Source: a bacterium
GTDB taxonomy: Bacteria > SZUA-79 > Acidulodesulfobacterales > Acidulodesulfobacteraceae
Reading direction: 5' to 3'
Assembly (NCBI GenBank): GCA_021800745.1
Contig: JAJYYS010000004.1
Coordinates: 1 to 32,140 of the forward strand
Length of the DNA: 32,140 bases
The notes below the pieces were generated by a model, which saw only the letters and a list, made by a program, of their open reading frames with translations, made no database searches and had not been told where the DNA came from. Both the position numbers and the translations under genes were made by a program. Of the stretch, positions 5,346 to 21,444 are shown in pieces; the stretch's first letter is position 1; every line of letters starts with the position of its first letter.

Positions 5346-5393
5346 TGGGGTGGATGACAGGTTTTGAACCTGCGACCACCGGAGTCACAATCC
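5346..5393 (-). repeat. left attachment site: 48-nt tRNA-His 3' fragment
   Basis: Exact copy of the tRNA-His 3' portion (CCA end, acceptor 3' strand, T arm, variable loop and anticodon arm), in the same orientation as the intact gene at 21397-21473. Beyond position 5393 the match stops at once (AAAGCCC here versus GGGGCTC in the tRNA). It cannot form a tRNA. Confidence 0.9.
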
Positions 5394-10149: not shown

Positions 10150-11169
10150 ATGGCAAGGGCAGATTTACTATTAAAGCTGATTCAGTCAGGCTTTAAGGGA
10201 GACAAGGAAGTTTTCAGAAAAGCCGTTGAGGCAATCATTGCCGAGGAGCGGAATAAACAGCATAAAGTTTTGGCGGATAAATTGGAAGAAGCGTTGAGCG
10301 CTAAACCACCCGGCAATGGATTTCATGAGAAACCATTTCTTAATGGTTCATCAACGCTGGAACAGCAGGTAGGGGCTTTGGTGTATGAGATTATGCCAAA
10401 GCGAAAAATGGATGAGTTGATATTACCGAACGATGTCTTGCAAATTTGCCAAGAGTTTGTTCAGGAGCACCACAGGATAGATTTATTACGCTCTTATAAT
10501 TTAGAACCTAGGAATCGATTGCTTTTAATCGGGCCTCCAGGAAATGGAAAGACATCTTTGGCAGAAACAATTGCGGATGCGTTGATGGTACCGCTTTTAG
10601 TTGTCCGGTATGAAAGTATTGTTGGAACATATTTGGGTGAGACCGCCGTCCGTCTTAAAAAATTATTCGATTATGTGGCGACACGAAAATGTGTTTTATT
10701 TTTCGACGAGTTTGAAACTTTAGGTAAGGAACGCGGCGATATTCATGAAACTGGCGAAATTAAACGTGTGGTGAGTTCACTTTTGCTTCAAATCGATGGG
10801 CTTCCCAGTCATGTCGTTGTTATTGGAGCGACCAATCATGCTGAATTACTAGATCGAGCTGTATGGAGGCGTTTTCAGATTCGTGTTAGTTTGCCAGCTC
10901 CAACCAGAGCACGTTTAACGGAATGGTTTGAAAAATTTGAGCGAAAGATTAAGGTTCCACTTGGCTATACCCCGGGAACGCTTGCAAAATATTTGCTTGG
11001 CTCGAGTTTCGCTGAAGCCGAGGAATTCGATGCGAGCGTTTTTAGGCAATATGTTCTAAATCAACCAAATGCCGATATGAAAAATATTATTTCTCAAACA
11101 ATTAGGCAATGGAATTCCCGTTCTGTGAAAGTTAAGCAACAAGATCAAAGGGAGGTGAATAATGGCTGA
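10150..11169 (+). CDS. ietA: AAA ATPase of the IetAS type
   Basis: 339-residue AAA-family ATPase: Walker A GPPGNGKT (128-135), Walker B CVLFFDEFETLG with Asp186/Glu187, sensor-1 Asn229 (VVVIGATNHAE) and an arginine-finger region DRAVWRRF. The N-terminal 90 residues are helical and have no known domain. The start has AAGGGG 6 nt upstream. It overlaps the subtilase gene by 8 nt. ATPase plus subtilisin-like protease pairs of this kind are known as IetAS, first described as a plasmid stability toxin-antitoxin unit (ATPase as antitoxin) and later listed among phage-defence systems. The role here is inferred from that arrangement. Codon use is less A/T-ending than the flanking chromosome, suggesting transfer. 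Confidence 0.8.
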   Translation: MARADLLLKLIQSGFKGDKEVFRKAVEAIIAEERNKQHKVLADKLEEALSAKPPGNGFHEKPFLNGSSTLEQQVGALVYEIMPKRKMDELILPNDVLQICQEFVQEHHRIDLLRSYNLEPRNRLLLIGPPGNGKTSLAETIADALMVPLLVVRYESIVGTYLGETAVRLKKLFDYVATRKCVLFFDEFETLGKERGDIHETGEIKRVVSSLLLQIDGLPSHVVVIGATNHAELLDRAVWRRFQIRVSLPAPTRARLTEWFEKFERKIKVPLGYTPGTLAKYLLGSSFAEAEEFDASVFRQYVLNQPNADMKNIISQTIRQWNSRSVKVKQQDQREVNNG

Positions 11170-13729
11170 ACGTCCACTACTTCTTTTCCCTCAGCCGGAG
11201 GCAGTTTCTCGATCTAAGTTAGTTCCTATAGGTGGGCGCTTTCACTTTCCAACTATTGATCGGCAGGATACTCGATTAACCCCCATGTTTAATCAATTAC
11301 AGTCGGCATTTAATGATCGACGTGTCGAGGTACAACGGACGACCGCTGGCGTTGATCCTGAACAGGTCTTAGTTATTGAAACTATTGGCGGTATTGAAAA
11401 CTTTGCGAATGCGGTAAGGCGTATTGAAGGATTTGAATGGATGGCTGAAACTGAGGTTGAAGAGATTGCACCTGATGAAGATTTCTTTGATGAGGAGAGA
11501 CCTCAAAAAGAATTGTCCGGCAGGCTCTATCTTGTTATGTCGAATCAGCACGCTCTCGAAGAAATGCTTTCTCTTTGGCAACGCTACAAAATGAATACTT
11601 CTAGTGCGTTTCATAGAGGGTTAAATAAATTCAAAGAGGTATTTAAGGCGTTAAAAAAAGTTCGTAGATGGGATGTTGAGGATCGCCTTTTAGAGACAGG
11701 GGTCTTAGAGGAATGGCAGGAGATGCTTCAGCATGAAGGGAACCGCGTTATTCGTTTTGAGGTTGAGCTTTGGTTCCGAAATCTGCCAGCAAAAAGACAA
11801 ACGAGTCAAGCTCAAGTTATGTCATTAATAACTGAGCTTGGGGGTCAAGTACTGCGACAATGTGTTTTATCGGAAATTTCATATCATGCTCTTTTGGCAG
11901 AACTGCCTGCCAATGCTATTCAGAATATTATTAGGAATAGAAATACATCCTTGGTAAAGAGTGACAACGTTATGTTTTTTCGCCCGTCTGGCCAAGTCTC
12001 AGCTGGGGACAAGCCAGTGGAGGGTGATTTTGGACAGGCAGGGGTACAGAGTGGAGTTCTTCCTTCTGGCAATCCAGTCGTAGCTGTGCTGGATGGGATG
12101 CCTTTATCGAATCACCAATTATTGTCGCATCGGATAATTATTGATGATCCTGATGACTGGGATTCCTCTTATCGGGCGGAAGACCGTTCCCATGGTACAG
12201 CAATGGCTTCGCTTATTATACATGGTGATATTAACTCTGGTACAGTTGATCCATTGAAGAAGCCTGTATATATGCGGCCAATTATGAAACCCAATCCAAC
12301 AGATTGGAGACCGCAACGATACGAAACAATTCCGGAAGATGTTTTGGCTATTGATTTGATTCATCGCTCGGTTAAAAGGATGTTTGAGGGAGAGGACGGA
12401 CAACAACCTATAGCTCCTACAGTGAAAATTATAAATTTATCAATCGGAGATCCTTATAGGCAATTCTCACAATCAATGAGCCCCATGGCCAAATTAATCG
12501 ATTGGTTAAGTTATAAATATAATGTTCTGTTTGTGATAAGCGCGGGAAACCATGCCAAGTCGATTTCGTTAGGGATTCCTATAGCAAATTTTAATCAGAC
12601 CCCAAAAGCTGAGGTTGAATCTGCAATCATTAAGGAACTATATCAAAAAGCCCGCAATCTCGGATTACTTTCTCCTGCTGAAAGTATTAATGGTATAACA
12701 GTTGGTTCTGCGCATTTGGATCATGCAACAAATATAACCACCGGAGATCGCATTGATCCATATGATTCATTTATTTTGCCGAGTCCTATATCTGCTTTTG
12801 GAAGTGGTTATAGGCGAGCTGTTAAACCAGATATTGTTTATGGTGGGGGAAGGCTGCTATATCGGCCAAAGATAAATATTAATCCAGTCGTTATCGATCC
12901 TGCCTTTTCGCGATCTGGTCCGGGCAATAAAGTAGCCTGTCCGGGAAATTCGCCAGGAGAATTGTCTAGGACGTCGCATTGCTGTGGAACTAGTAATGCT
13001 ACGGCTCTCATTACTAGAGCAGGAGGGATTTGCTATGACCTCCTAATGGAAGTTGTTAAAGATCGGGTTGTCGGCGTTGAATATGTGCCATATGTCGCCC
13101 CTTTACTGAAAGCGATGCTTGTTCATGGTGCTGACTGGGGAGATAGTGGAGAGCATATTGCAGAAATACTGCGCACTCCAGATAATACGCGTCAGTTAAA
13201 AGGGTGGATATCGCGCTGGTTGGGTTATGGCATACCTCAAGTTGAACGGGTTTTAGGGTGTACTGAACAAAGGGTTACTCTTTTGGGTTTTGGCGGATTA
13301 AAAGATAACGAAGCACATGTGTTTAAATTACCGTTACCGCCTTCGTTATCATCGCGGACAGATAGGCGTATATTAACGGTTACGCTTGCGTGGATATCCC
13401 CTATTTCAGCAAATTCTCAGAGATATCGGACAGCCTGTTTGTGGTTTGAGGCAAATAACAACAGCATTGCTTCTAATAGGAGCAATGTAGATGGGAAAGC
13501 CGTTAAGAGAGGCACATTGCAACATGAAATTTTTAAAGGACAACAAGCCATTCCCTTTGAAGATGGCGAATATATCGGAATCAAGGTTAATTGTAAAAAC
13601 GATGCAGGAAAGATAATCGAACCTGTAAATTATGGTATAGCGGTAACTTTGGAAGTAGGTGAAGGGATCGATATTGCAGTGTATGACGAGATTCTCGCTA
13701 GACTACCGGTATCAATTCAAATTAATTAA
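11162..13729 (+). CDS. ietS: subtilisin-like serine protease of the IetAS type
   Basis: 855-residue S8-type protease with a complete catalytic set: Asp311 (VAVLDGMPL), His344 (DRSHGTAMASLI), oxyanion-hole Asn463 (VLFVISAGNHAK) and Ser611 (CCGTSNATALITRAGG). A 300-residue N-terminal region precedes the protease and a beta-rich region of about 200 residues follows it. There is no signal peptide, so it acts in the cytoplasm. AGGGAGGTG precedes the ATG, which lies inside the ietA end. In IetAS the protease is the toxic or effector subunit and the ATPase restrains or activates it; whether this pair works as a stability unit or as anti-phage defence cannot be told from sequence. All active-site residues are intact. 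Confidence 0.82.
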   Translation: MAERPLLLFPQPEAVSRSKLVPIGGRFHFPTIDRQDTRLTPMFNQLQSAFNDRRVEVQRTTAGVDPEQVLVIETIGGIENFANAVRRIEGFEWMAETEVEEIAPDEDFFDEERPQKELSGRLYLVMSNQHALEEMLSLWQRYKMNTSSAFHRGLNKFKEVFKALKKVRRWDVEDRLLETGVLEEWQEMLQHEGNRVIRFEVELWFRNLPAKRQTSQAQVMSLITELGGQVLRQCVLSEISYHALLAELPANAIQNIIRNRNTSLVKSDNVMFFRPSGQVSAGDKPVEGDFGQAGVQSGVLPSGNPVVAVLDGMPLSNHQLLSHRIIIDDPDDWDSSYRAEDRSHGTAMASLIIHGDINSGTVDPLKKPVYMRPIMKPNPTDWRPQRYETIPEDVLAIDLIHRSVKRMFEGEDGQQPIAPTVKIINLSIGDPYRQFSQSMSPMAKLIDWLSYKYNVLFVISAGNHAKSISLGIPIANFNQTPKAEVESAIIKELYQKARNLGLLSPAESINGITVGSAHLDHATNITTGDRIDPYDSFILPSPISAFGSGYRRAVKPDIVYGGGRLLYRPKININPVVIDPAFSRSGPGNKVACPGNSPGELSRTSHCCGTSNATALITRAGGICYDLLMEVVKDRVVGVEYVPYVAPLLKAMLVHGADWGDSGEHIAEILRTPDNTRQLKGWISRWLGYGIPQVERVLGCTEQRVTLLGFGGLKDNEAHVFKLPLPPSLSSRTDRRILTVTLAWISPISANSQRYRTACLWFEANNNSIASNRSNVDGKAVKRGTLQHEIFKGQQAIPFEDGEYIGIKVNCKNDAGKIIEPVNYGIAVTLEVGEGIDIAVYDEILARLPVSIQIN

Positions 13730-13850: not shown

Positions 13851-16199
13851 TCACAGACTACTCTCCAAAATTTCAAAATGCTTTGGATCTGATTCCTTGA
13901 CGATGTTAAGCAAAATTTTTATCGCATCTTTGCTTTCACTTTTATCCTTATGTTCTATGGCACTAGTCGGGTCTGAATTGTGTGAAAATTCATTAATTAA
14001 TTTATATGCCTTGTTAGCGTCAACTTTGCTTATTTTTTCGACTGGTTTATTGATAATATTTACTAAACTATCCATTTTATATTTTTGATTGCCTGTGTTT
14101 GGTATCTTAAAATCTGCAAAAATATCAAAAAATCTTCTCGCTATATTTCCAATAGTATAAAAATCCATATAATCCATATTTTGTTTTTCCGAAAATTCTT
14201 TAAGTTTGGCAAATAAGAAATGATATTCGGATTTATATTTTCGTAACGTATTATCAAGTTTAACAATTTTGGCTTTTCGGACATCCGATTCAATAAAATT
14301 CTCTACCATAAAAAACCCGCAAGGAATTGGCTTTTCTGGCTTGTTTTCTAATTTCAGTTTTTTATTATCATCTTCTATTCTCTCATTTTTTTTAACAAAC
14401 CACTCTTTCGCTAGATTGAAAAACTGGAAATTGTGGGTGGATATAAAAAGTTGTTCTACTTCTTTGAAATGCTCTTTTATCACTGAATAACAATGGTAGA
14501 TAAAATTTGAATCAAAACTGGAAATAGGATCGTCAATAAAAATAATTCCTTTTGTTTTGTCAAAACCACTTTCGCTAACTTTTACGATAAAATATGAAAA
14601 CGCAATTGCTGTTTTTTCTCCTTCACTCAAATTTTTTGCGAGCAGCCCGTCTCTTCTTATTACATAGCCCTTTTTATTTTTGTCCAGTTCAAGTTTTATT
14701 TCTTCTCTACCAAAAAATTCTTTCAAGTGTTTGTTAATTTCTTCTATTGCTCTTGCGATATTCGAGGTTTTTCTTTCTAATTCTGAAATTTCAGATTCAT
14801 TTTTGTTAAAAGTTTCGAGCGCCATTTTTTCATTTTTGGTTGTTTCTTCAATGTCCGCTACCATTTTTTTATAATCCTGGTAAGACAATGCAACAGCGAT
14901 TAAATGCAATTCAAGCATTTCTCTTGCAGTACTTACTTCATTAGTATGGTTTCCTGCCTTCTCGTTATGAGCCAAAAAAATCTTATTTATTTCTGAAATA
15001 TGCTGATTATACGAAGACAAAAAATCTTCTGGAATTTCAGGATTCGCAATGGCTGCAAGCGGATTATTGTATTTTTCATTTAATTTTTTCACCGCCTCAT
15101 CAATCCAAGAATTTATTTTTTCAATGCAACCGTTAAGTTCTTTTGCCTTATCTGCATATTCATCCTTTAGAGTAGGGTAGAGTTCATCATTTTTTTCAGT
15201 GATTTGTATCTTTTTGATTTCTAAAACCTCGTTTTTTAGGCGAATAATCGCATTTTGTAACTCTTCGTAATCTTTGCTAAAATGTTTTGAAAGTATATCT
15301 AAAAAATCATTATCGAGCGGCTTTTGGCAAAACAGGCATTTCCCCTCATTCGCCTTTGTTTTATATAAATCAAAACCTTGTTTGACCCAGCTATTTAAAA
15401 TTTGGTCATTCTTTAACCTTTCCAGTGTTTCGGAAATGACCTCCTTGCCAAGCAATTTTTTAATTTTCTCATAAATTTTTTGGAAATCATCTATCATTTC
15501 ACCGTCAAAATAAAAAGATAATTTAAAGTCGAAGAGCGTATTTTGGGTTTTCCACGCGTCTCTTCTGATTATTGTTTCATTTTTTTTCTTGTCTTCATCG
15601 GAAAGAATTTTATCACCAAAATTATCAATGCCGATACTATTAATTCTATTTTCCGCTTTTGTTCTGTTGTATGCTTTGTTAAAAAGAGCATTTGAAATTT
15701 CTCTTCCCAAATCTGTCAAAAAAGTTTCTTTAGTTTTTTCTTTTGAGGAACAGTCTTTCTTTGCTTCCTCCCATGCCTTGTTAAGGTCGATTCTATTTTG
15801 CCTTAATTTTTCAAGTTTATTTTTGTTTTCAATGTCTTCTTCACTAACATAAACAATTGGATTACATGAATCGGAAGGATCAAAAGATATGTTTTCATCT
15901 ATAAAATCTTGATTAAAGACTTTTACCGGCAATACATTTGTATCAACATAGGTATTTTTAACACTTGTTCCATCGCTTGTTTCTAATTCAAATATTCCAT
16001 TCTCTGGATATTGCTTAAATCTATCTTTATCATAAACGCACTTTTTCTCGCAACTAGCAAAAATGCGGGAAATCGTCGTCTTTCCGCTTCTGTTCCAGCC
16101 ATAAATTAAATTGAATTTTTTACAATCGGAAAGTTCTGTTACCCAAGTAAATTTATGAAATATACCGAAATTTTCGAGTTTTGAAATTTTCTTAATCAT
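13851..16199 (-). CDS. AAA_13 family ATPase, RloC-like
   Basis: 782-residue Rad50-like ABC ATPase. Walker A is GWNRSGKT (34-41), a long central coiled coil contains Cys288-x-x-Cys291 (GKCLFCQKPLDNDF) like a zinc hook, the signature is NLSEGEKTAIAF, Walker B is GIIFIDDPISSFDS and the H-loop is FISTHNFQFF. The C-terminal 180 residues hold DNTLRKYKSEYHFLF and LINEFSHNSDP. This plan is that of RloC/PrrC-type anticodon nucleases, which watch over restriction systems, but the nuclease residues cannot be assigned by eye. It lies 65 nt downstream of the DUF262-HNH gene on the same strand, so probably in the same operon as the methyltransferase. That context fits a restriction-guarding ATPase. RloC assignment is moderate; AAA_13 is firm. 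Confidence 0.8.
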   Translation of the reverse strand: MIKKISKLENFGIFHKFTWVTELSDCKKFNLIYGWNRSGKTTISRIFASCEKKCVYDKDRFKQYPENGIFELETSDGTSVKNTYVDTNVLPVKVFNQDFIDENISFDPSDSCNPIVYVSEEDIENKNKLEKLRQNRIDLNKAWEEAKKDCSSKEKTKETFLTDLGREISNALFNKAYNRTKAENRINSIGIDNFGDKILSDEDKKKNETIIRRDAWKTQNTLFDFKLSFYFDGEMIDDFQKIYEKIKKLLGKEVISETLERLKNDQILNSWVKQGFDLYKTKANEGKCLFCQKPLDNDFLDILSKHFSKDYEELQNAIIRLKNEVLEIKKIQITEKNDELYPTLKDEYADKAKELNGCIEKINSWIDEAVKKLNEKYNNPLAAIANPEIPEDFLSSYNQHISEINKIFLAHNEKAGNHTNEVSTAREMLELHLIAVALSYQDYKKMVADIEETTKNEKMALETFNKNESEISELERKTSNIARAIEEINKHLKEFFGREEIKLELDKNKKGYVIRRDGLLAKNLSEGEKTAIAFSYFIVKVSESGFDKTKGIIFIDDPISSFDSNFIYHCYSVIKEHFKEVEQLFISTHNFQFFNLAKEWFVKKNERIEDDNKKLKLENKPEKPIPCGFFMVENFIESDVRKAKIVKLDNTLRKYKSEYHFLFAKLKEFSEKQNMDYMDFYTIGNIARRFFDIFADFKIPNTGNQKYKMDSLVNIINKPVEKISKVDANKAYKLINEFSHNSDPTSAIEHKDKSESKDAIKILLNIVKESDPKHFEILESSL

Positions 16200-16264
16200 A
16201 TTTTTATAATCAAATCTCTGAATTTATCATACAACCCATAAATTGAGTTTTGGAGTTTGTTAAT

Positions 16265-17362
16265 TTATTTTCCAGATTTAGTTCGGTTGTCTTGTTTACA
16301 CAACATTTGGCAATTTTCGGCTGTAGTCCTCCCGCCCTCATGCCAAGGAACGATATGATCGGCCTCCATTTCCTCAATTTTAAAATGTTTTTTACACATC
16401 AGGCAAATCCCTTTCTGCTTCTCGTATTGTTTAATTTTCGTCTTTTCATCAAACGTACGCAAATTTAGTGTCTTTTCGTTTCCTGTTAAGAGATATTCAT
16501 AAATACCTTTCTTGCTGTCTACTTCATCATCATCAATAAGTTCAGCAATTCGTTTTTCCAGATTTGCCGCGTTCAGTTTGTCATTCTTATGTTCGTTGTA
16601 TAATCGACCCCACTCTAAGCCTTTCATAAATTTCCGATAATTAGGAAATACACGCTCAATCCATGACACAACTTCCTGAAAATATTGCCATAATTCCTGA
16701 GCATCAGCGTCTTGCTGGTGCTTGCTCATATAATCCTCAATTTTTTCGTCGGAAATCCAATCAAGAGCTTTTTCCAAATATTCCTGGCGTATATACGACC
16801 CATTCAAATATTTTTCACCAATCTTGTACGCTGCACAATTTGTCTTACTAAACCATAGCTTTGCTTTAGCGAGCCATGGTCCGGTATAAATTGCGTTACG
16901 TAGTTCTTGATTGGTGAGTTTCATGCCGGCAATATTAATCGTCTTAAACCAATCAAGTTTTTCACTATCGGTACCTTCACATTCGTAAACCGACAACTCG
17001 TAATCAAGAATTTGTTGTTTCTGGTCAATCGTTAAATTATCAAAAGCCAACTCATACCCCTCATTAAACTTGACAGGTATAATATCGGTGATGTATTGAC
17101 AAATACTGATGGTGCGTTGCTGCCCATCCATAAGTTCAAATTCTCCTTCATTGGTTTTTGCCCAGTACATTGTATTAAGTGGAAAGCCCTGCCGAATCGT
17201 CCTGATGACAGCGTCCCGTTCTTTATTCCCATAAATAAACTCGCGCTGGTATGCTGGACGAATATTAAGTTTGCCGCCGTAACCAACCACGCCGCTTTCG
17301 CCGTTATCTTTATAGCCATCCACAACATCACACACCTTGATATTTTTAAGTTCTATTTTCAT
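16265..17362 (-). CDS. DUF262-HNH protein, candidate restriction nuclease
   Basis: 365 residues. The N-terminal DUF262 (ParB/Srx-like, related to GmrS) domain has RPAYQRE (35-41) and DGQQRT (79-84). The C-terminal HNH domain (317-365) has Cys320-x-x-Cys323, the catalytic block EADHIVPWHEGG (Asp335, His336), and Cys351/Cys355. DUF262 plus nuclease proteins such as GmrSD cut modified or foreign DNA using nucleotide-dependent control. The gene begins 13 nt after the end of the EcoRI-family methyltransferase, so it is a likely nuclease partner in an unusual restriction-modification pair. No EcoRI-type endonuclease is present. Function by pairing is inference. Confidence 0.85.
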   Translation of the reverse strand: MKIELKNIKVCDVVDGYKDNGESGVVGYGGKLNIRPAYQREFIYGNKERDAVIRTIRQGFPLNTMYWAKTNEGEFELMDGQQRTISICQYITDIIPVKFNEGYELAFDNLTIDQKQQILDYELSVYECEGTDSEKLDWFKTINIAGMKLTNQELRNAIYTGPWLAKAKLWFSKTNCAAYKIGEKYLNGSYIRQEYLEKALDWISDEKIEDYMSKHQQDADAQELWQYFQEVVSWIERVFPNYRKFMKGLEWGRLYNEHKNDKLNAANLEKRIAELIDDDEVDSKKGIYEYLLTGNEKTLNLRTFDEKTKIKQYEKQKGICLMCKKHFKIEEMEADHIVPWHEGGRTTAENCQMLCKQDNRTKSGK

Positions 17363-17375
17363 ATTTTAACCCCCA

Positions 17376-18650
17376 CTATATTTTTCGTTTAATAAATAAT
17401 CTTTTAAATGTTTCTTTGCCGTTTAATAGAGACCCTCTGCCATAAATCCTATTGGGGTCTTGGTCAACGCCACGATTTGAACCAAGAATCTCAAATTCGT
17501 TTAATGAATAATCTCGCGTACTTCCTTTGTCCCTTAATATATGGCCGTCCTGCCTTGTACTCAATGCAGATTCCATCTGGCTCAATAACTCCTGTTTGTC
17601 CGACGATAGCGAATGAGTATTCTGAAGTATGGCTGACCCCCCCCCCCCCCTCGTAAATGTCAAGTCTTTGCCGTCGTCACCCTTCCTAAACTTGACAATC
17701 TCTATGCCACTTTCAGGTACCCATTTGTCCAAGAACGTTATAGGCACGCCCATTACGCCATTGTAGTCACTCGGCATTTCTGCTATCTTTGATACCTCAA
17801 TAGCATCATAGTTATCGTATTTTGGGTATAGCCCTTTCTTGCGTCCTTGTTCGTAGGTGAGATACGGGGTGATAGGGTCTTCCGATCTGTCGACGTAAAG
17901 ATTGGTAAACCAACCAACATTGCGGAACTTCACAAGTCCCGTATTTGGGTCATACACGCCAGCTGCAAACTCGCGTGATTTTTCCGGCGGGATCTTGAAA
18001 TATGCATTGCCTTTGGCAAAGCCATATCCTAACCACAGCTTATTCTCTTTGATGAGTTTAAAAATTTCTTTATATGTAATGGCATTCTTGCTACCAATAA
18101 TAAGAAACTTTTTGTCATACTCTACTAACTGAGCTACAAATTCACGAAATAGACTGAACGGCGGATTAGTGATGACAATATCTGCTTTCTTAAGCAATCC
18201 TATGCATTCGTCACTACGAAAATCGCCCGTTCCTTTGAGTGGCATAGTGACATTTTTATTATGTCTTAACAAAATTTCAACATCGTCTAAATTTATCGCG
18301 CCATCCTCGTTAGCATCCGGCACTTCGTTGATTTCCACTACATACGGCTCTTTACCATTCGGCTTAAGTCCTTCAATATCAAACAACGGCAATTGACCGC
18401 CAACAATTGGGGATTTGAGATAGCTAGTGGCGATAAGTTTCTTGAGTCCTAAGGTATTAAAGTTGGCAGCGAAATATTTGAAAAAATTGCTCTCAAACGG
18501 ATCATCACAGTTGCAGAGAATTACTTTGCCGTGCAACTGGTCGCGGTAATGCTTAAGTTCGTTGGCAATATCACCAAGCTGAGTATAAAACTCATCAAAC
18601 TTTGCTCGGCTAGCTTTATGGAGATTTTTGTTTAAAGATTTAGTTTTCAT
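17376..18650 (-). CDS. EcoRI-family adenine-N6 DNA methyltransferase with switchable C-terminus
   Basis: 424 residues in the frame present here. The family is fixed by the catalytic NPPF at 162-165 (DIVITNPPFSLFREFVAQLV) and by NPNTGLVKFRNVGWFTNL-like mid-sequence; M.EcoRI-type enzymes make N6-methyladenine. After GKDLTFTR (to residue 334) comes a run of 14 G (17637-17650). The frame shown ends FKRLFIKRKI. With 13 G the chain would end QPYFRILIRYRRTNRSY (355 residues). With 12 or 15 G it would end KGQRKYARLFIKRI (about 385 residues). Each tail carries a family-like terminal motif, so slippage swaps C-termini. The start overlaps an upstream short frame (ATGA). The DUF262-HNH gene follows after 13 nt, and an XRE regulator lies upstream. 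The number of G should be treated as uncertain. Confidence 0.88.
   Translation of the reverse strand: MKTKSLNKNLHKASRAKFDEFYTQLGDIANELKHYRDQLHGKVILCNCDDPFESNFFKYFAANFNTLGLKKLIATSYLKSPIVGGQLPLFDIEGLKPNGKEPYVVEINEVPDANEDGAINLDDVEILLRHNKNVTMPLKGTGDFRSDECIGLLKKADIVITNPPFSLFREFVAQLVEYDKKFLIIGSKNAITYKEIFKLIKENKLWLGYGFAKGNAYFKIPPEKSREFAAGVYDPNTGLVKFRNVGWFTNLYVDRSEDPITPYLTYEQGRKKGLYPKYDNYDAIEVSKIAEMPSDYNGVMGVPITFLDKWVPESGIEIVKFRKGDDGKDLTFTRGGGGSAILQNTHSLSSDKQELLSQMESALSTRQDGHILRDKGSTRDYSLNEFEILGSNRGVDQDPNRIYGRGSLLNGKETFKRLFIKRKI
17385..17402 (-). repeat. second RLFIKR module motif
   Basis: Minus strand AGATTATTTATTAAACGA, encoding RLFIKR in the frame present. It differs by one base from 17497-17514, which encodes the same residues in another frame. 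This is evidence for tandem duplication of the methyltransferase tail. Confidence 0.75.
17491..17636 (-). other. alternative methyltransferase C-termini in the other two frames
   Basis: Immediately after the G run, frame -1 gives QPYFRILIRYRRTNRSY and stops at 17582-17584. Frame -2 gives SHTSEYSFAIVGQTGV and ends GQRKYARLFIKRI with its TGA at 17491-17493. That TGA overlaps GAATTTGAG, which in the present frame starts the EFEILGSNRG block of the longest tail. All three frames therefore hold coding-like sequence with related endings. Confidence 0.75.
17497..17514 (-). repeat. first RLFIKR module motif
   Basis: Minus strand AGATTATTCATTAAACGA, 17/18 identical to 17385-17402. It encodes RLFIKR only when the G run is 12 or 15 long. 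Confidence 0.75.
17637..17650 (-). repeat. G14 homopolymer in methyltransferase coding strand
   Basis: Fourteen consecutive C on the plus strand, that is G14 in the gene, encoding the end of Arg334 and Gly335-338. Runs of this length are classical slipped-strand mispairing sites. In AT-rich DNA such a run is very unlikely by chance. Assembly error in its length is possible. Confidence 0.95.
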
Positions 18651-18709
18651 AAATTATTTTCCACTTCAAATCGCCTTCGCCGTTCGTCAAGTGTTTCTCC
18701 TTCATACAT
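18647..18709 (-). CDS. very short frame coupled to the methyltransferase
   Basis: Twenty codons, MYEGETLDERRRRFEVENNL, whose TGA overlaps the methyltransferase ATG (TTATGA). The same frame is open upstream to the XRE stop (NGRDYLYSYYWMYEGETLDE), and that part also reads like protein, so it may be the rest of a decayed or longer gene lacking a clear start. It may only serve translational coupling. No family recognised. Confidence 0.35.
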   Translation of the reverse strand: MYEGETLDERRRRFEVENNL

Positions 18710-18742
18710 CCAATAATAAGAATATAAATAATCTCGTCCATT

Positions 18743-18952
18743 TTATTTTATTAAATCATCAAGTGATATTCCGAGTGCATCCGCTATTTTTTTAACTGTT
18801 TCGATAGTAGGGTTGAGGGTTGTGCCCGCTTCAATTTTTGCAATCGTATGAAAAGCCAAATTTGCCCTTTTTGAAAGCTGGTCCTGCGAAATACCAAGTT
18901 TATTTCGGTATTTCTTGACATTGCCCGCTATTGTGGATTTTACCTTTGACAT
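18743..18952 (-). CDS. XRE-family HTH regulator
   Basis: 69-residue single-domain lambda-repressor-like protein: YRNKLGISQDQLSKRANLAF and HTIAKIEAGTTLNPTIETVK form the HTH, ending ALGISLDDLIK. Length is normal for small XRE proteins. It lies 92 bp upstream of the methyltransferase on the same strand, where controller (C) proteins of restriction-modification systems are found, so timed expression of the methyltransferase and nuclease genes is a reasonable inference. The 275-bp region upstream is shared with the divergent TIR-like gene. Confidence 0.88.
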   Translation of the reverse strand: MSKVKSTIAGNVKKYRNKLGISQDQLSKRANLAFHTIAKIEAGTTLNPTIETVKKIADALGISLDDLIK

Positions 18953-19151
18953 ATTCGTATAGCTTTACTATGATAGTTATTTGGAATACAAAATATTTAT
19001 TATTGCTATTTAGTATATGAAATTATTAACTTCTGGTCAAACGAAAATAAGGGGGCATAAGTTCCTTTATAGAACACAAAAATATTAAAGAAATAATTTA
19101 ATATTTAAAAATAATATTGAAAATAATTAAATATTGTATTTAAATTAATCT

Positions 19152-19157
19152 TATAAT
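19152..19157 (+). promoter_or_regulatory. -10 box of the TIR-like gene
   Basis: TATAAT 70 nt before the ATG, without a convincing -35 at the right distance. A small hairpin GGCTC-GGA-GAGCC (19160-19172) would lie at the 5' end of the transcript. The rest of the intergenic stretch (18953-19227) is AT-rich with nothing else clear. Confidence 0.4.
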
Positions 19158-19227
19158 ATGGCTCGGAGAGCCTAATGTCACAAAATAATAAATGTAAGCG
19201 TCTAACTTATAAGGAGATTTTCAAGAT

Positions 19228-19644
19228 ATGAAAACATACAATATTTTTATAAGCCATTCCTGGGCTTACTCTGGATTTTATGATGGACTTATTAATTTTC
19301 TCGATAATGCAAGATATTTTTCCTACAATGACCACTCCGTTCCAATATACGACCCTATCCATACAAAAGGAACCGATAAAGAATTATACGAAGCTATTTA
19401 TAAAAAAATGCAGGGTTGCCATGTGGTATTAATTTCAACGGGAGTTTATTCAACTTATAGCAAATGGATAAATAAGGAAATAAAAATTGCTAGGGAAGGA
19501 TTTATTACAGGGTCGAAGCCTATCATCGGAATAAATCCCTGGGGTCAAAAAAATATCTCCTCTGTAGTTGAAGAACATGCAGTTAAAACAGTAGGTTGGC
19601 GTTCCGATTCTATTATTGATGCAATTAAAAATCATTCCCTATAA
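19228..19644 (+). CDS. TIR-like (ThsB/DUF1863-type) protein
   Basis: 138-residue single-domain protein. The start KTYNIFISHSWAYSGFYDGL is the first TIR strand-loop, CHVVLISTGVYSTYSKWINK ends in the position of the usual catalytic Glu (Glu84 in WINKEIKIA), and GSKPIIGINPWGQ follows. It looks like the MTH538/DUF1863 TIR-like group that includes Thoeris ThsB, whose members turn NAD into a signal. AAGGAG lies about 10 nt upstream. Its TAA is followed at once by the ATG of a small membrane protein, so the two form a unit. No ThsA, SIR2 or other Thoeris partner is present. NAD-based signalling to the membrane protein is inferred, not shown. Confidence 0.82.
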   Translation: MKTYNIFISHSWAYSGFYDGLINFLDNARYFSYNDHSVPIYDPIHTKGTDKELYEAIYKKMQGCHVVLISTGVYSTYSKWINKEIKIAREGFITGSKPIIGINPWGQKNISSVVEEHAVKTVGWRSDSIIDAIKNHSL

Positions 19645-20142
19645 ATGAATTCAGGTCTATTTAAAAAAACAGAAGAAGACTACGGCACAGAATATAAAAA
19701 TCATTTATTTGAGCAATATAAATTGTTTATAGAAAGCGCCGAGAGGGTTAGCGACAGAAGGCAAAGCGCAAATAATTATTTTTTGGCGATAAATACCGCA
19801 ATTTTTTCTTTTCTCGGATTAATTTATGAAATAAAATTAAAGGATATTTCAATTATTTGCATTTTGCTTTCAATTGTTGGAATATTTATTTGCGGGATTT
19901 TTTTCTTCCTTATAAATTCGTACAAACAATTGAACAGCGGAAAATTCAAGGTTATTCACGAGATCGAACAGAAACTGCCTTTGGCGTTATATCAACGGGA
20001 GTGGGAAATACTTGGTGAGGGAAAAAATAAATGCCAATACTGGCCTTTTTCCCATATCGAAATAAAAATACCTTTTATTTTTGGTTTAATTTATCTAATT
20101 TTATTAATTATTTATATTTTAACAATTGTCCATAAATTATGA
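19645..20142 (+). CDS. three-helix membrane protein paired with the TIR-like protein
   Basis: 165 residues with predicted transmembrane helices at about 45-62, 68-91 and 142-162. A charged N-terminus ends in DRRQSANNYFLAIN (37-50), and a cytoplasmic segment of about 50 residues lies between helices 2 and 3 (KVIHEIEQKLPLALYQREWE). The DRRQ-x-x-N-x-Y/F-L-x-x-N pattern is one I associate with widespread small membrane proteins in defence islands, but I cannot name the family with certainty; SLATT-like two-helix effectors are a relative to test. It starts directly on the TIR-like stop (TAAATG), so one protein of each is probably made per message. Likely membrane-disrupting effector of a two-gene abortive-infection module. 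Confidence 0.65.
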   Translation: MNSGLFKKTEEDYGTEYKNHLFEQYKLFIESAERVSDRRQSANNYFLAINTAIFSFLGLIYEIKLKDISIICILLSIVGIFICGIFFFLINSYKQLNSGKFKVIHEIEQKLPLALYQREWEILGEGKNKCQYWPFSHIEIKIPFIFGLIYLILLIIYILTIVHKL

Positions 20143-20151
20143 CTTAACACT

Positions 20152-20183: not shown

Positions 20184-21227
20184 TTATTTTTGTCGATTTT
20201 TACCAAAAACCTCATTCACAGCCTTCCTGAGCGTATCCGGCACCAAATGGCTATACCGCTTCGTCATCTGCGTCGTCCGGTGGCCGAGAAGTTCGCCGGT
20301 TATGTAAAGCGACGTGCCGTTCATAACCATTTTGCTTGCGAAAACGTGCCTTAAGTCGTGTATCCTTAAATCTTTCAATCCGGCGTTACGGCAGGCGGTA
20401 TGGAAAGAACGCTTAAAATCGCCAACCTTAGCCCCGTTGTTATTAAAGACATACAAACTATCCTGATTTTTTTCAATTCCCTCTAAAACGTCCCTCAGGG
20501 CTTCCGATACCGGAATATGCCTGTCGTATTTCGTCTTCGTTCCTTTAATTGCGATAACGCCGTTTTTCAGGTCCACGTCGTCCCACTTTAAATTTAGCGC
20601 CTCGCCCTTCCGGCAACCTGTATATATCAAAAAGGTAATTATATCCCTGGTCAGCTTGTTCGTGGCCCCGGCGATAAGCTTTTTTATATCCTCGTCGGAA
20701 AGGGTTTTTAGGCGGGAGAGTTCGTTGAGTTTCTTAATTTTATACGCCGGGTTCTTGTCGGTATATTCCCTTTCGATGCAGAAATTGAAAAAATTGGAAA
20801 TAATTATAACTTCGTAATTAACCGACCTGAAATTTACCTCGGACTCCTTTTTACCGCTATTCTTTCCCATTGACATTATCTCGAGCTTTCTTCCAAGCTG
20901 GTAATTTTTAATATCAAGCGGCAGGATGGACGACAATGCCTTATTTTCAAAAAAGGGAAGGAAATGCTTGGCCGCTATAATCTTTCGCTCAATAGCTTTT
21001 TCAGGATTGCCGTTGTTTTTCAGGTAATTTTCCCAGGCCGTCTGAAACAAAAGGCGCTTATTTTTGTCCGTCGGAAGGCTATGGTTCCCTTTAATAATAT
21101 CGTTCTTAACGGAAATTTCTATTTGTTTGGCAATATTCCTGTCGGTAGTTTTGCAGGAACGCCTGTATCTTTTGCCTTCATGCACGAAATCGTAGAAGTA
21201 ATATTTGCCGTTTTTTATGATTGACAT
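20184..21227 (-). CDS. int: tRNA-His-targeting tyrosine integrase
   Basis: 347 residues with an N-terminal arm-binding segment (MSIIKNGKYYFYDFVHEGKR), a SAM-like core-binding domain (about 60-165) and a complete catalytic domain: Arg206 (TGCRKGEAL), Lys231 or Lys233, His290/Arg293 (HDLRH), His316 (LLGHRTTQ) and nucleophile Tyr325 (KRYSHL). It reads away from tRNA-His, its start 170 bp from the tRNA 3' end, as expected for the integrase that placed the island there. Homologous but ruined starts at 2811 and 5180 show that relatives used the neighbourhood before. The gene looks intact and may still be active. Confidence 0.95.
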   Translation of the reverse strand: MSIIKNGKYYFYDFVHEGKRYRRSCKTTDRNIAKQIEISVKNDIIKGNHSLPTDKNKRLLFQTAWENYLKNNGNPEKAIERKIIAAKHFLPFFENKALSSILPLDIKNYQLGRKLEIMSMGKNSGKKESEVNFRSVNYEVIIISNFFNFCIEREYTDKNPAYKIKKLNELSRLKTLSDEDIKKLIAGATNKLTRDIITFLIYTGCRKGEALNLKWDDVDLKNGVIAIKGTKTKYDRHIPVSEALRDVLEGIEKNQDSLYVFNNNGAKVGDFKRSFHTACRNAGLKDLRIHDLRHVFASKMVMNGTSLYITGELLGHRTTQMTKRYSHLVPDTLRKAVNEVFGKNRQK

Positions 21228-21396: not shown

Positions 21397-21444
21397 TGGG
21401 GTGGATGACAGGTTTTGAACCTGCGACCACCGGAGTCACAATCC
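21397..21444 (-). repeat. right attachment site within tRNA-His
   Basis: Exact 48-nt partner of 5346-5393. It spans the encoded CCA end through to the 5' strand of the anticodon stem. Confidence 0.9.

What the first reader, a model, noticed from the sequence alone, without database searches (positions are those of the whole stretch)
17376..17660. Three-position phase switch: G14 tract selecting three different C-termini of an EcoRI-family methyltransferase
The coding-strand G14 (17637-17650) follows codon 333. The three frames beyond it are not random: 14 G gives an 86-residue tail ending FKRLFIKRKI, 13 G gives QPYFRILIRYRRTNRSY, and 12 or 15 G gives a tail ending GQRKYARLFIKRI. All share the pattern aromatic-x-R-[IL]-[LF]-I-[RK], and two share an almost identical 18-nt block (17385-17402, 17497-17514) that codes RLFIKR in different frames. 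The TGA of one tail overlaps the start of the EFEILG block of the next. Known phase-variable methyltransferases mostly switch on and off or shuffle modules by recombination; exchange of tails by slippage among three open frames would be a compact new way to change target choice or partner contact. The function of the tails is inference.
Basis: partly seen in the sequence, partly recalled or inferred. Interest (0 to 1): 0.94.

Follow-up and report, generated by a model that had tools for sequence, protein, structure and literature searches.

The report
Slippage tract choosing three methyltransferase tails
A run of 14 G's inside the gene for a predicted DNA-methylating enzyme stands in front of three different endings, one in each reading frame and each recognisable as an ending of this enzyme family, so slips in the run are predicted to switch the enzyme between three tails and likely change which DNA sites it marks.

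Summary
The G14 tract (17637-17650, minus-strand gene) lies in an EcoRI-type methyltransferase gene (PF13651, E 2.7e-122). All three frames behind it end in a module that matches a profile of relatives' tails; even the short 13-G tail is the normal end of an FRKG...KDL...PYFRILI module. A 5.4-kb locus in another genome differs only by one G (15, another tail). The layout recurs elsewhere with other repeats at the same spot: (GA)n, (CAGA)n/(ACAG)n, (GAACA)n. Of 10 family regions with an in-gene repeat (one is this locus in G001), 8 have tails in all three frames, against 1 of 161 others and 0 of 1,710 shuffles. In one relative group all three tails occur behind identical catalytic parts. The neighbouring DUF262-HNH nuclease follows the catalytic body far more than the tail. 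Best reading: a three-state switch of a C-terminal, probably target-recognition, module. Target change, and a nuclease led by the methyltransferase, are inferred. C-terminal phase variation and the NgoAV switch are known; three homologous modules, one per frame, were not found in print in my searches.

The parts
17651..18650 (-). Common part of the EcoRI-type adenine methyltransferase gene (residues 1-333 plus the first base of codon 334): catalytic body and first half of C-terminal cassette 1 (IEIVKFRKGDDGKDL)
   Evidence: PF13651 E 2.7e-122 over 9-422; PADLOC MTase_II; AlphaFold2 of P0001 plus VIA-align: methyltransferase fold over about residues 6-252
17637..17650 (-). G14 slippage tract
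   Evidence: 15 G in the otherwise identical locus L001
17582..17635 (-). Tail 1 (13/16 G): QPYFRILIRYRRTNRSY*, completing cassette 1 (FRKG...KDL...PYFRILI)
   Evidence: profile match 19.5 bits with its first half, 12.6 alone; same module in repeat-free relatives such as P0030, P0036, P0077
17491..17637 (-). Tail 2 (12/15/18 G): ...SEYSFAIVGQTG...GRPYIKGQRKYARLFIKRI*
   Evidence: profile match 20.4 bits; found in frame in L001 (15 G) and P0001
17376..17636 (-). Tail 3 (14/17 G, the state in the window): open linker through tail 2's DNA, then cassette 3
17376..17495 (-). Cassette 3 proper: FEILGSNRGVDQDPNRIYGRGSLLNGKETFKRLFIKRKI*; its start overlaps tail 2's stop
   Evidence: 70 bits to the tail profile; the same cassette type is the only tail of relatives such as P0063 and cassette 2 of L002
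16265..17362 (-). Partner nuclease gene: GmrSD_N (DUF262) plus HNH; its ATG is 13 nt after tail 3's stop, 128 nt after tail 2's and 219 nt after tail 1's
   Evidence: Pfam PF03235 and PF01844; PADLOC REase_II E 8.7e-137; distances measured on L001
18743..18952 (-). Small helix-turn-helix-like (XRE type) ORF of 69 aa upstream, possibly a controller of the pair
   Evidence: ORF; its type is recalled from the sequence, no profile search was run on it

Best explanation
The G14 tract sits inside the C-terminal module of a predicted EcoRI-type DNA methyltransferase gene, each of the three frames behind it ends in a different module of the family's C-terminal type, and slippage of the tract is therefore predicted to switch the enzyme among three tails that likely set its DNA target. 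Shown: three open frames, each ending in a family tail; different tract lengths and tails on otherwise identical DNA from two assemblies; the same layout with other frame-shifting repeats in other bacteria; all three tails behind identical catalytic parts in one relative group. Inferred: (a) the change comes from replication slippage; (b) each tail is a target-recognition module, a hypervariable loop between two framework strands outside the methyltransferase core; (c) the DUF262-HNH nuclease takes its site from the methyltransferase or senses its marks, because the nuclease stays alike while tails differ, and a nuclease with a fixed site of its own would be expected to kill switched cells; (d) the longest-tail state may couple translation to the nuclease best, since only that stop abuts the nuclease start.
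For: Three family tails in three frames. Length change on identical DNA: L001 equals window 14765-20150 except for one extra G, 5,386 identical bases and 1 gap; P0001 is identical over residues 1-338 and has one glycine more than the 15-G form, which fits 18 G. Recurrence: of 171 family regions, 10 have an in-gene repeat; 8 of these 10 have tails in three frames, 1 in two (L186), 1 in one by score (L176, two by eye); of the other 161, 1 has three (L050, with an interrupted G7AG3 run), 155 have one, 5 none; Fisher p 2.6e-11, 4e-10 without L001, which is this same locus, and 1e-7 without L001-L003. Units seen in DNA: G or A, GA/AG, CAGA/ACAG, GAACA; none of 3 or 6 bases in the roughly 150 nt scanned behind the catalytic part. 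Peptide repeats behind the catalytic part in 214 of 353 family proteins, periods 2 (155, of them ER 150), 5 (26), 4 (21), 1 (8), 7 (2), 8 (2); none of 3, 6 or 9. In all 9 three-tail loci every frame is open from repeat to tail stop, 27 of 27; the chance of that, from shuffles, is 0.08 to below 0.0005 for each of the 8 loci computed. Natural states: at 99% catalytic identity (single linkage) a 57-protein group has tails 35/10/9 plus 3 others; in a motif-defined group of 60 the tails are 9/38/11 plus 2 unclassified, and pairs with fully identical catalytic parts (290 or more residues, best 304/304) exist for every tail combination (8 of 342, 3 of 99, 27 of 418 pairs). L039's own DNA reads P0121's tail (20 of the last 20 residues) and, by eye with a few differences, P0122's tail in its other two frames. 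Modularity: tail identity is almost independent of catalytic identity (rho 0.08), nuclease identity follows the catalytic part (rho 0.42) and only weakly the tail (0.12; 4,560 pairs of 96 loci); pairs with 86-91% alike nucleases carry unrelated tails. Three relatives carry an HsdS specificity domain (PF01420), behind the repeat in the two read in full. All 9 full three-tail loci are followed by the nuclease gene.
Against: No reads, methylomes or binding data were available; tract lengths in assemblies can be wrong for a G14 run. The 13/16-G state was not seen for this exact gene, only in relatives 89-96% alike with another repeat (P0003, P0005, P0009, P0010). AlphaFold2 leaves the linkers and loops at low confidence (residues 332-367 in P0001, 332-414 in the 14-G form), and no solved relative of the C-terminal part was found, so the recognition role is not shown. 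In states 2 and 3 the half cassette 1 stays in the protein; whether that is tolerated is not known. 38 of 141 assessable single-tail loci lack the nuclease (19 more were on contigs too short), and so do the two-tail loci L176 and L186, so coupling is not obligatory in the family. The weak link between nuclease and tail identity is not zero (partial 0.09). Overlap-region conservation is only modestly raised (window-L002 90% against 76% in the catalytic part, window-L003 77% against 72%). DNA was not seen for the P entries; their frames are inferred from proteins.
Confidence: 0.72

Rival explanations
1. The tails switch something other than the DNA target: contact with the nuclease, activity level, or translational coupling to the nuclease gene, whose start abuts only the longest tail's stop.
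For: The last tail's stop lies -20 to +22 nt from the nuclease start in 9 of 9 three-tail loci, the other stops 65-327 nt upstream. Nuclease identity hardly falls when tails differ.
Against: Tails are hypervariable in a fixed framework and are exchanged across the family almost independently of the nuclease, as recognition modules are and partner-contact surfaces usually are not (general knowledge); 38 of 141 assessable single-tail loci lack a detected nuclease gene; an HsdS specificity domain occurs at the same place in relatives.
Confidence: 0.14
2. Transcriptional or ribosomal slippage on the tract makes all three proteins at once from one DNA, so the cell has a mixture rather than a heritable switch.
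For: Long G runs and short repeats can slip in RNA synthesis or translation (general knowledge); all frames are open.
Against: The DNA itself differs in length between near-identical loci (by inference P0001), and a (ACAG)n relative, L056, has more units than P0241/P0242, which match it 100% over 97% of the searched N-terminal part; RNA slippage does not need that. Units of 4 and 5 bases are poor slippage sites for ribosomes (general knowledge).
Confidence: 0.08
3. Only one tail works; the others are remains of cassette duplications and the tract is an ordinary on/off switch.
For: Tandem cassettes occur in the family also in one frame (P0053 has four); repeated end blocks could drive recombination. 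Tail 2's type was seen only in P0025 and in repeat-bearing relatives, not as a sole tail of a clearly repeat-free one.
Against: Remains would collect stops; 27 of 27 frames in 9 loci are open to their tail. All three tails occur in frame behind identical catalytic parts in one relative group. Tail types 1 and 3 are the sole tails of repeat-free relatives (P0030, P0063).
Confidence: 0.05
4. The run length is an assembly artefact in a single-frame gene.
For: Homopolymers of 14 are error-prone in sequencing (general knowledge).
Against: Family tails in all three frames cannot come from run-length errors; the same layout exists with 2-, 4- and 5-base repeats.
Confidence: 0.01

Closest known systems
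C-terminal phase variation in Helicobacter canadensis and Neisseria gonorrhoeae (PMC2823697, PMC5320596; passages seen)
   Same: A repeat tract late in a gene switches the C-terminus among three frames.
   Different: In the passages seen the alternative ends mostly differ by a few residues, some are longer, some fuse with the next gene; no set of homologous, family-type modules, one per frame, is described there, and this methyltransferase family is not named.
NgoAV Type I system of Neisseria gonorrhoeae (PMC9577141, PMC7394358; passages seen)
   Same: Change of a poly-G tract changes the specificity of a restriction-modification system.
   Different: There one tract chooses between a truncated and a fused HsdS subunit (two specificities). 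Here the tract is in the methyltransferase itself, with three complete alternative ends; no HsdM, HsdS or HsdR domain was found in the 8 window proteins scanned.
Type III mod phasevarions (PMC7394358, PMC13076061; passages seen)
   Same: Repeat tract in an N6-adenine methyltransferase gene; variable recognition region (the latter recalled and listings).
   Different: Described as ON/OFF switching; recognition regions differ between alleles, not between frames of one allele.
Inverting Type I hsdS loci (PMC7394358; passages seen)
   Same: Several recognition modules stored at one locus, one in use at a time.
   Different: Switching by recombination between inverted repeats, not by frame choice.
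EcoRI-type methyltransferase with DUF262-HNH nuclease (PADLOC MTase_II/REase_II)
   Same: Same two proteins.
   Different: Most of the relatives examined have one tail and no repeat by the scan's cut-offs: 153 of 171 regions.

Membership tests
EcoRI-type adenine methyltransferase (PF13651) | Full-length match to the family profile | tested here: met
   PF13651 408.8 bits, profile 1-344 of 345, cut-off 26.4
EcoRI-type adenine methyltransferase (PF13651) | Conserved NPPF motif | tested here: met
   N162-P163-P164-F165 invariant among 58 aligned sequences, P0001 first; same residues in the window protein
EcoRI-type adenine methyltransferase (PF13651) | N6-adenine methylation activity and its target | not testable with these tools
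   needs expression and methylome sequencing
C-terminal phase variation | Repeat tract late in the gene, ends differing by frame | tested here: met
C-terminal phase variation | Tract length varies within a population | tested here: inconclusive
   14, 15 and inferred 18 G between assemblies/entries; no reads from one population
Type I restriction-modification with phase-variable HsdS (NgoAV kind) | HsdS specificity subunit (PF01420) carries the tract | tested here: not met
   only PF13651 in the window gene; PF01420 is listed for 3 relatives, P0332, P0333, P0337
Type III Mod/Res | Mod (N6_N4_Mtase) and Res helicase-nuclease pair | tested here: not met
   the pair is PF13651 plus PF03235/HNH; no Mod or Res domain in the 8 window proteins scanned
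Type II restriction-modification (PADLOC MTase_II + REase_II) | Both proteins match the system's models side by side | tested here: met
   E 4.1e-107 and 8.7e-137
Type II restriction-modification (PADLOC MTase_II + REase_II) | Nuclease recognises its site by itself | tested here: inconclusive
   nuclease identity only weakly follows the tail, which speaks against it only if the tail sets the target
Phasevarion | Switching changes expression of many genes | not testable with these tools
   needs methylomes and transcriptomes of locked forms

The most novel reading that the evidence does not exclude
A widespread, undescribed class of three-state restriction-modification switch: a slippage tract of any frame-shifting unit, placed in the hairpin of the first recognition cassette, selects one of three overlapping recognition cassettes, and a DUF262-HNH nuclease that borrows its site from the methyltransferase changes target in step, giving one small locus three immune specificities.
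Probability: 0.5. Interest if true: 0.93.

Novelty: new variant of a known kind. Interest (0 to 1): 0.86.

Why it matters
If true, bacteria hold three recognition modules in about 260 bases, overlapped in three frames, and reach any of them by a slip of a few bases, without a recombinase. It would explain how a nuclease gene can stay constant while its methyltransferase changes target, give phages a moving target, and make a direct test possible: three locked tract lengths, three methylomes. An assembly shows only one tail in frame, so such systems can hide in databases as allelic variants or frameshifts.

Tried and rejected
Search for a solved relative: the two matches at E <= 1 are not methyltransferases; the Foldseek and VIA-align matches span mainly the methyltransferase core, about residues 6-252, so the tail's fold was not identified. 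AlphaFold2 of the 14-G form gave low confidence (mean pLDDT 65.7). Overlap-region conservation as proof of three-frame selection: too weak to use. Plasmid and phage collections hold family members (98 records, 30 listed, and 12 records), the best listed plasmid row at 60% identity; two were opened for annotation and none was scanned for tails. The owner genus rarely carries the gene: 3 of 99 genomes searched matched; of the 16 of its genus (G001 included) only G001 has the full gene and G015 pieces.

Choices that affect counts: tail profile built from 88 of the 92 proteins P0029-P0120 (P0035 and 3 repeat-bearing ones left out); a tail match needs 8 bits, reach to model position 34 and end within 25 residues of a stop; L155 and L173 have T8/A8 runs behind the stop and are counted as without in-gene repeat. 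8 of 361 proteins without a recognisable catalytic end were dropped. Period 2 there includes LP (4) and AD (1), and period 1 includes R, S and K runs, which are probably not DNA repeats; 2 are G. L001 is the window's own locus in another assembly, and L001-L003 are related to each other, so their chances are not independent. For L050 the end of the run was set by hand. Loci came from searches with this protein family or its motif, so no prevalence in nature can be read from them.

Literature: no description of three homologous tails in three frames of a methyltransferase was seen in the listings (open-access library only) or in the passages seen; this is not proof of absence.

Full report
1. 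The observation. The coding strand of the gene at 17376-18650 (minus strand) holds G14 at 17637-17650; the next longest G/C run in the window is 8. The gene is a full-length match to the EcoRI-type adenine methyltransferases (PF13651, 408.8 bits). The 18-nt blocks are 17/18 identical and tail 2's stop overlaps cassette 3's start.

2. What the tails are. Relatives without a repeat mostly end in a module F-E-I-[IL]-G, a hypervariable loop..NGK..[FY]-x-R-[IL]-x-I-K-R. A profile of 88 such tails matches all three tails of the window: 70.0 bits (14 G), 20.4 bits (15 G) and, for the 13-G tail with its first half, 19.5 bits (12.6 alone). The short 13-G tail is therefore no fragment: relatives such as P0030, P0036 and P0077 end in FRKGxDxKDL-xxxGK-xPYFRILI-like sequence, and the G tract stands where they have the NGK hairpin. 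The tract thus sits inside cassette 1; one frame completes it, the two others leave it for a whole cassette 2 or, through an open linker read out of frame across cassette 2, for a whole cassette 3.

3. Tract length differs. The nearest held genome, G001, carries the locus with 5,386 identical bases and one extra G: 15 G, tail 2 in frame. Protein entry P0001 is identical over residues 1-338 and has a glycine count that fits 18 G, again tail 2. The window shows tail 3. Tail 1 was seen in frame only in relatives with another repeat (P0003, P0005, P0009, P0010, 89-96% alike). Run lengths from assemblies carry homopolymer error, so the next point matters more.

4. The same layout elsewhere, with other repeats. 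Among 171 family regions from public genomes and viral contigs (one search gives their sources), 10 have a frame-shifting repeat inside the gene. Eight of the 10 have family tails in all three frames: L001 G15 (this locus in G001), L002 and L003 (GA)4.5, L023 (GA)6.5, L039 (AG)9, L026 (CAGA)6, L056 (ACAG)19, L178 (GAACA)7.4; L186 (A9) has two; L176 ((AG)10) one by score, two by eye. Of the other 161, one (L050, with an interrupted G run at the same hairpin) has three, 155 one, 5 none. Of 1,710 dinucleotide shuffles 6 had one frame with a match and none two. Fisher's test for three tails with against without in-gene repeat gives p = 2.6e-11, 4e-10 without L001 and 1e-7 without L001-L003. Record titles of these loci name a Moranbacteria, an Acidimicrobiales, an Abditibacteriota, a Eubacterium, a Porphyromonadaceae and two Clostridia MAGs; L176, L178 and L186 are viral contigs. 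No unit of 3 or 6 bases was found in the stretch scanned, and in 353 relatives the peptide repeats behind the catalytic part have periods 2 (155, of them ER 150), 5 (26), 4 (21), 1 (8), 7 (2), 8 (2), never 3, 6 or 9, with 139 showing none. In all 9 three-tail loci each frame is open from the repeat to its tail's stop; for 8 of them the chance of this was estimated and lies between 0.08 and under 0.0005.

5. All three states exist. Among relatives of L039 a group whose catalytic parts are linked at 99% identity (57 proteins) has tails 35, 10 and 9, with 3 others. In a motif-defined group of 60 they are 38, 11 and 9, 2 unclassified; for every pair of tails there are proteins with fully identical catalytic parts, best 304/304 residues (8 of 342, 3 of 99 and 27 of 418 pairs). 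The DNA of L039 reads all three kinds: its own frame ends in PYFRILIRRR, another gives P0121's tail (20 of the last 20 residues), the third, by eye and with a few differences, P0122's. L056 has more (ACAG) units than entries P0241 and P0242, which match it 100% over 97% of the N-terminal part searched.

6. Modules and partner. Over 4,560 pairs of 96 single-tail loci with the nuclease, tail identity hardly follows catalytic identity (rho 0.08), nuclease identity follows the catalytic part (0.42) and only weakly the tail (0.12; partial 0.09). In bins of like catalytic identity with at least 9 same-tail pairs the nuclease medians of same-tail and different-tail pairs differ by at most about 4 points and in both directions (53.6 against 57.5, 59.6 against 58.9, 62.0 against 62.6, 81.0 against 78.8). 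Nucleases 86-91% alike accompany unrelated tails. All 9 three-tail loci have the DUF262-HNH gene downstream; L176 and L186 do not; of 141 single-tail loci with enough sequence 103 do. In the 9 loci the last tail's stop lies -20 to +22 nt from the nuclease start, the earlier stops 65-327 nt before it.

7. How it most likely works. Shown: an enzyme body with three alternative family-type ends, chosen by repeat length. Inferred: slippage during replication moves cells between states. AlphaFold2 of P0001 places the first framework strand (316-321) and the last (382-386) with fair confidence and leaves what lies between them largely open; the methyltransferase core covers about 6-252. C-terminal position outside the core, hypervariability in a fixed framework, free exchange, and three relatives listed with an HsdS specificity domain (P0332, P0333, P0337), behind the repeat in the two read in full, make a target-recognition role the best reading. 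If so, a nuclease with a site of its own would be expected to destroy switched cells; since the nuclease hardly varies with the tail, it likely takes its site from the methyltransferase or reads its marks. The DUF262 proteins SspE and GmrSD act in dependence on DNA modification (PMC8713573 passages; PMC4619093 abstract start and passages), which makes either plausible. None of this has been tested.

8. Known or new. C-terminal phase variation was named in H. canadensis (PMC2823697, passages) and found in gonococci (PMC5320596, passages). NgoAV changes specificity when a poly-G tract in hsdS changes (PMC9577141 and PMC7394358, passages). A 2026 review (PMC13076061, passages) gives ON/OFF expression and hsdS recombination as the ways in which phase-variable methylation arises. 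A tract that chooses among three homologous modules, one per frame, in the methyltransferase itself was not seen in the searches made. I rate it a new variant of a known kind: the principle has precedents; the three-module design, its spread and its use of many repeat types do not, as far as searched.

Noticed in passing
window 5346-5393 and 21397-21444: A 48-bp direct repeat of part of tRNA-His, next to a tyrosine integrase (20184-21227), bounds a stretch of about 16 kb that holds the methyltransferase pair and other defence genes: probably an integrative defence island.
   Followed up: partly
window 10150-13729: IetA/IetS-like ATPase and S8 peptidase defence pair (PADLOC IetA 500.6 bits, IetS 1096.4 bits).
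   Followed up: no
window 13851-16199: AAA_13 protein of the PDC-S06 candidate defence type with a weaker PrrC match, directly downstream of the nuclease on the same strand.
   Followed up: no
window 19228-20142: TIR-like ThsB protein followed by an 8xMP membrane protein (PF08937, PF24838); a possible two-gene defence unit.
   Followed up: no
P0332, P0333, P0337 (relatives): Methyltransferase body and an HsdS specificity domain (PF01420); in P0332 and P0337, read in full, it follows a (TDRQ)n repeat, and the two share the body but have different HsdS parts.
   Followed up: partly
P0053 (relative): Four C-terminal cassettes in tandem in one frame, 537 aa.
   Followed up: no
P0140 (relative): Tail 1 and tail 2 of its group fused in one frame, perhaps by a deletion between them.
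   Followed up: no
L176 and L186 (viral contigs): Two-tail versions with a repeat and without a detected nuclease gene nearby.
   Followed up: partly
G015 contig C2, about 118885-119592 (L195, L197, L198): Pieces of a related methyltransferase in a genome of the same genus, apparently a broken copy.
   Followed up: no
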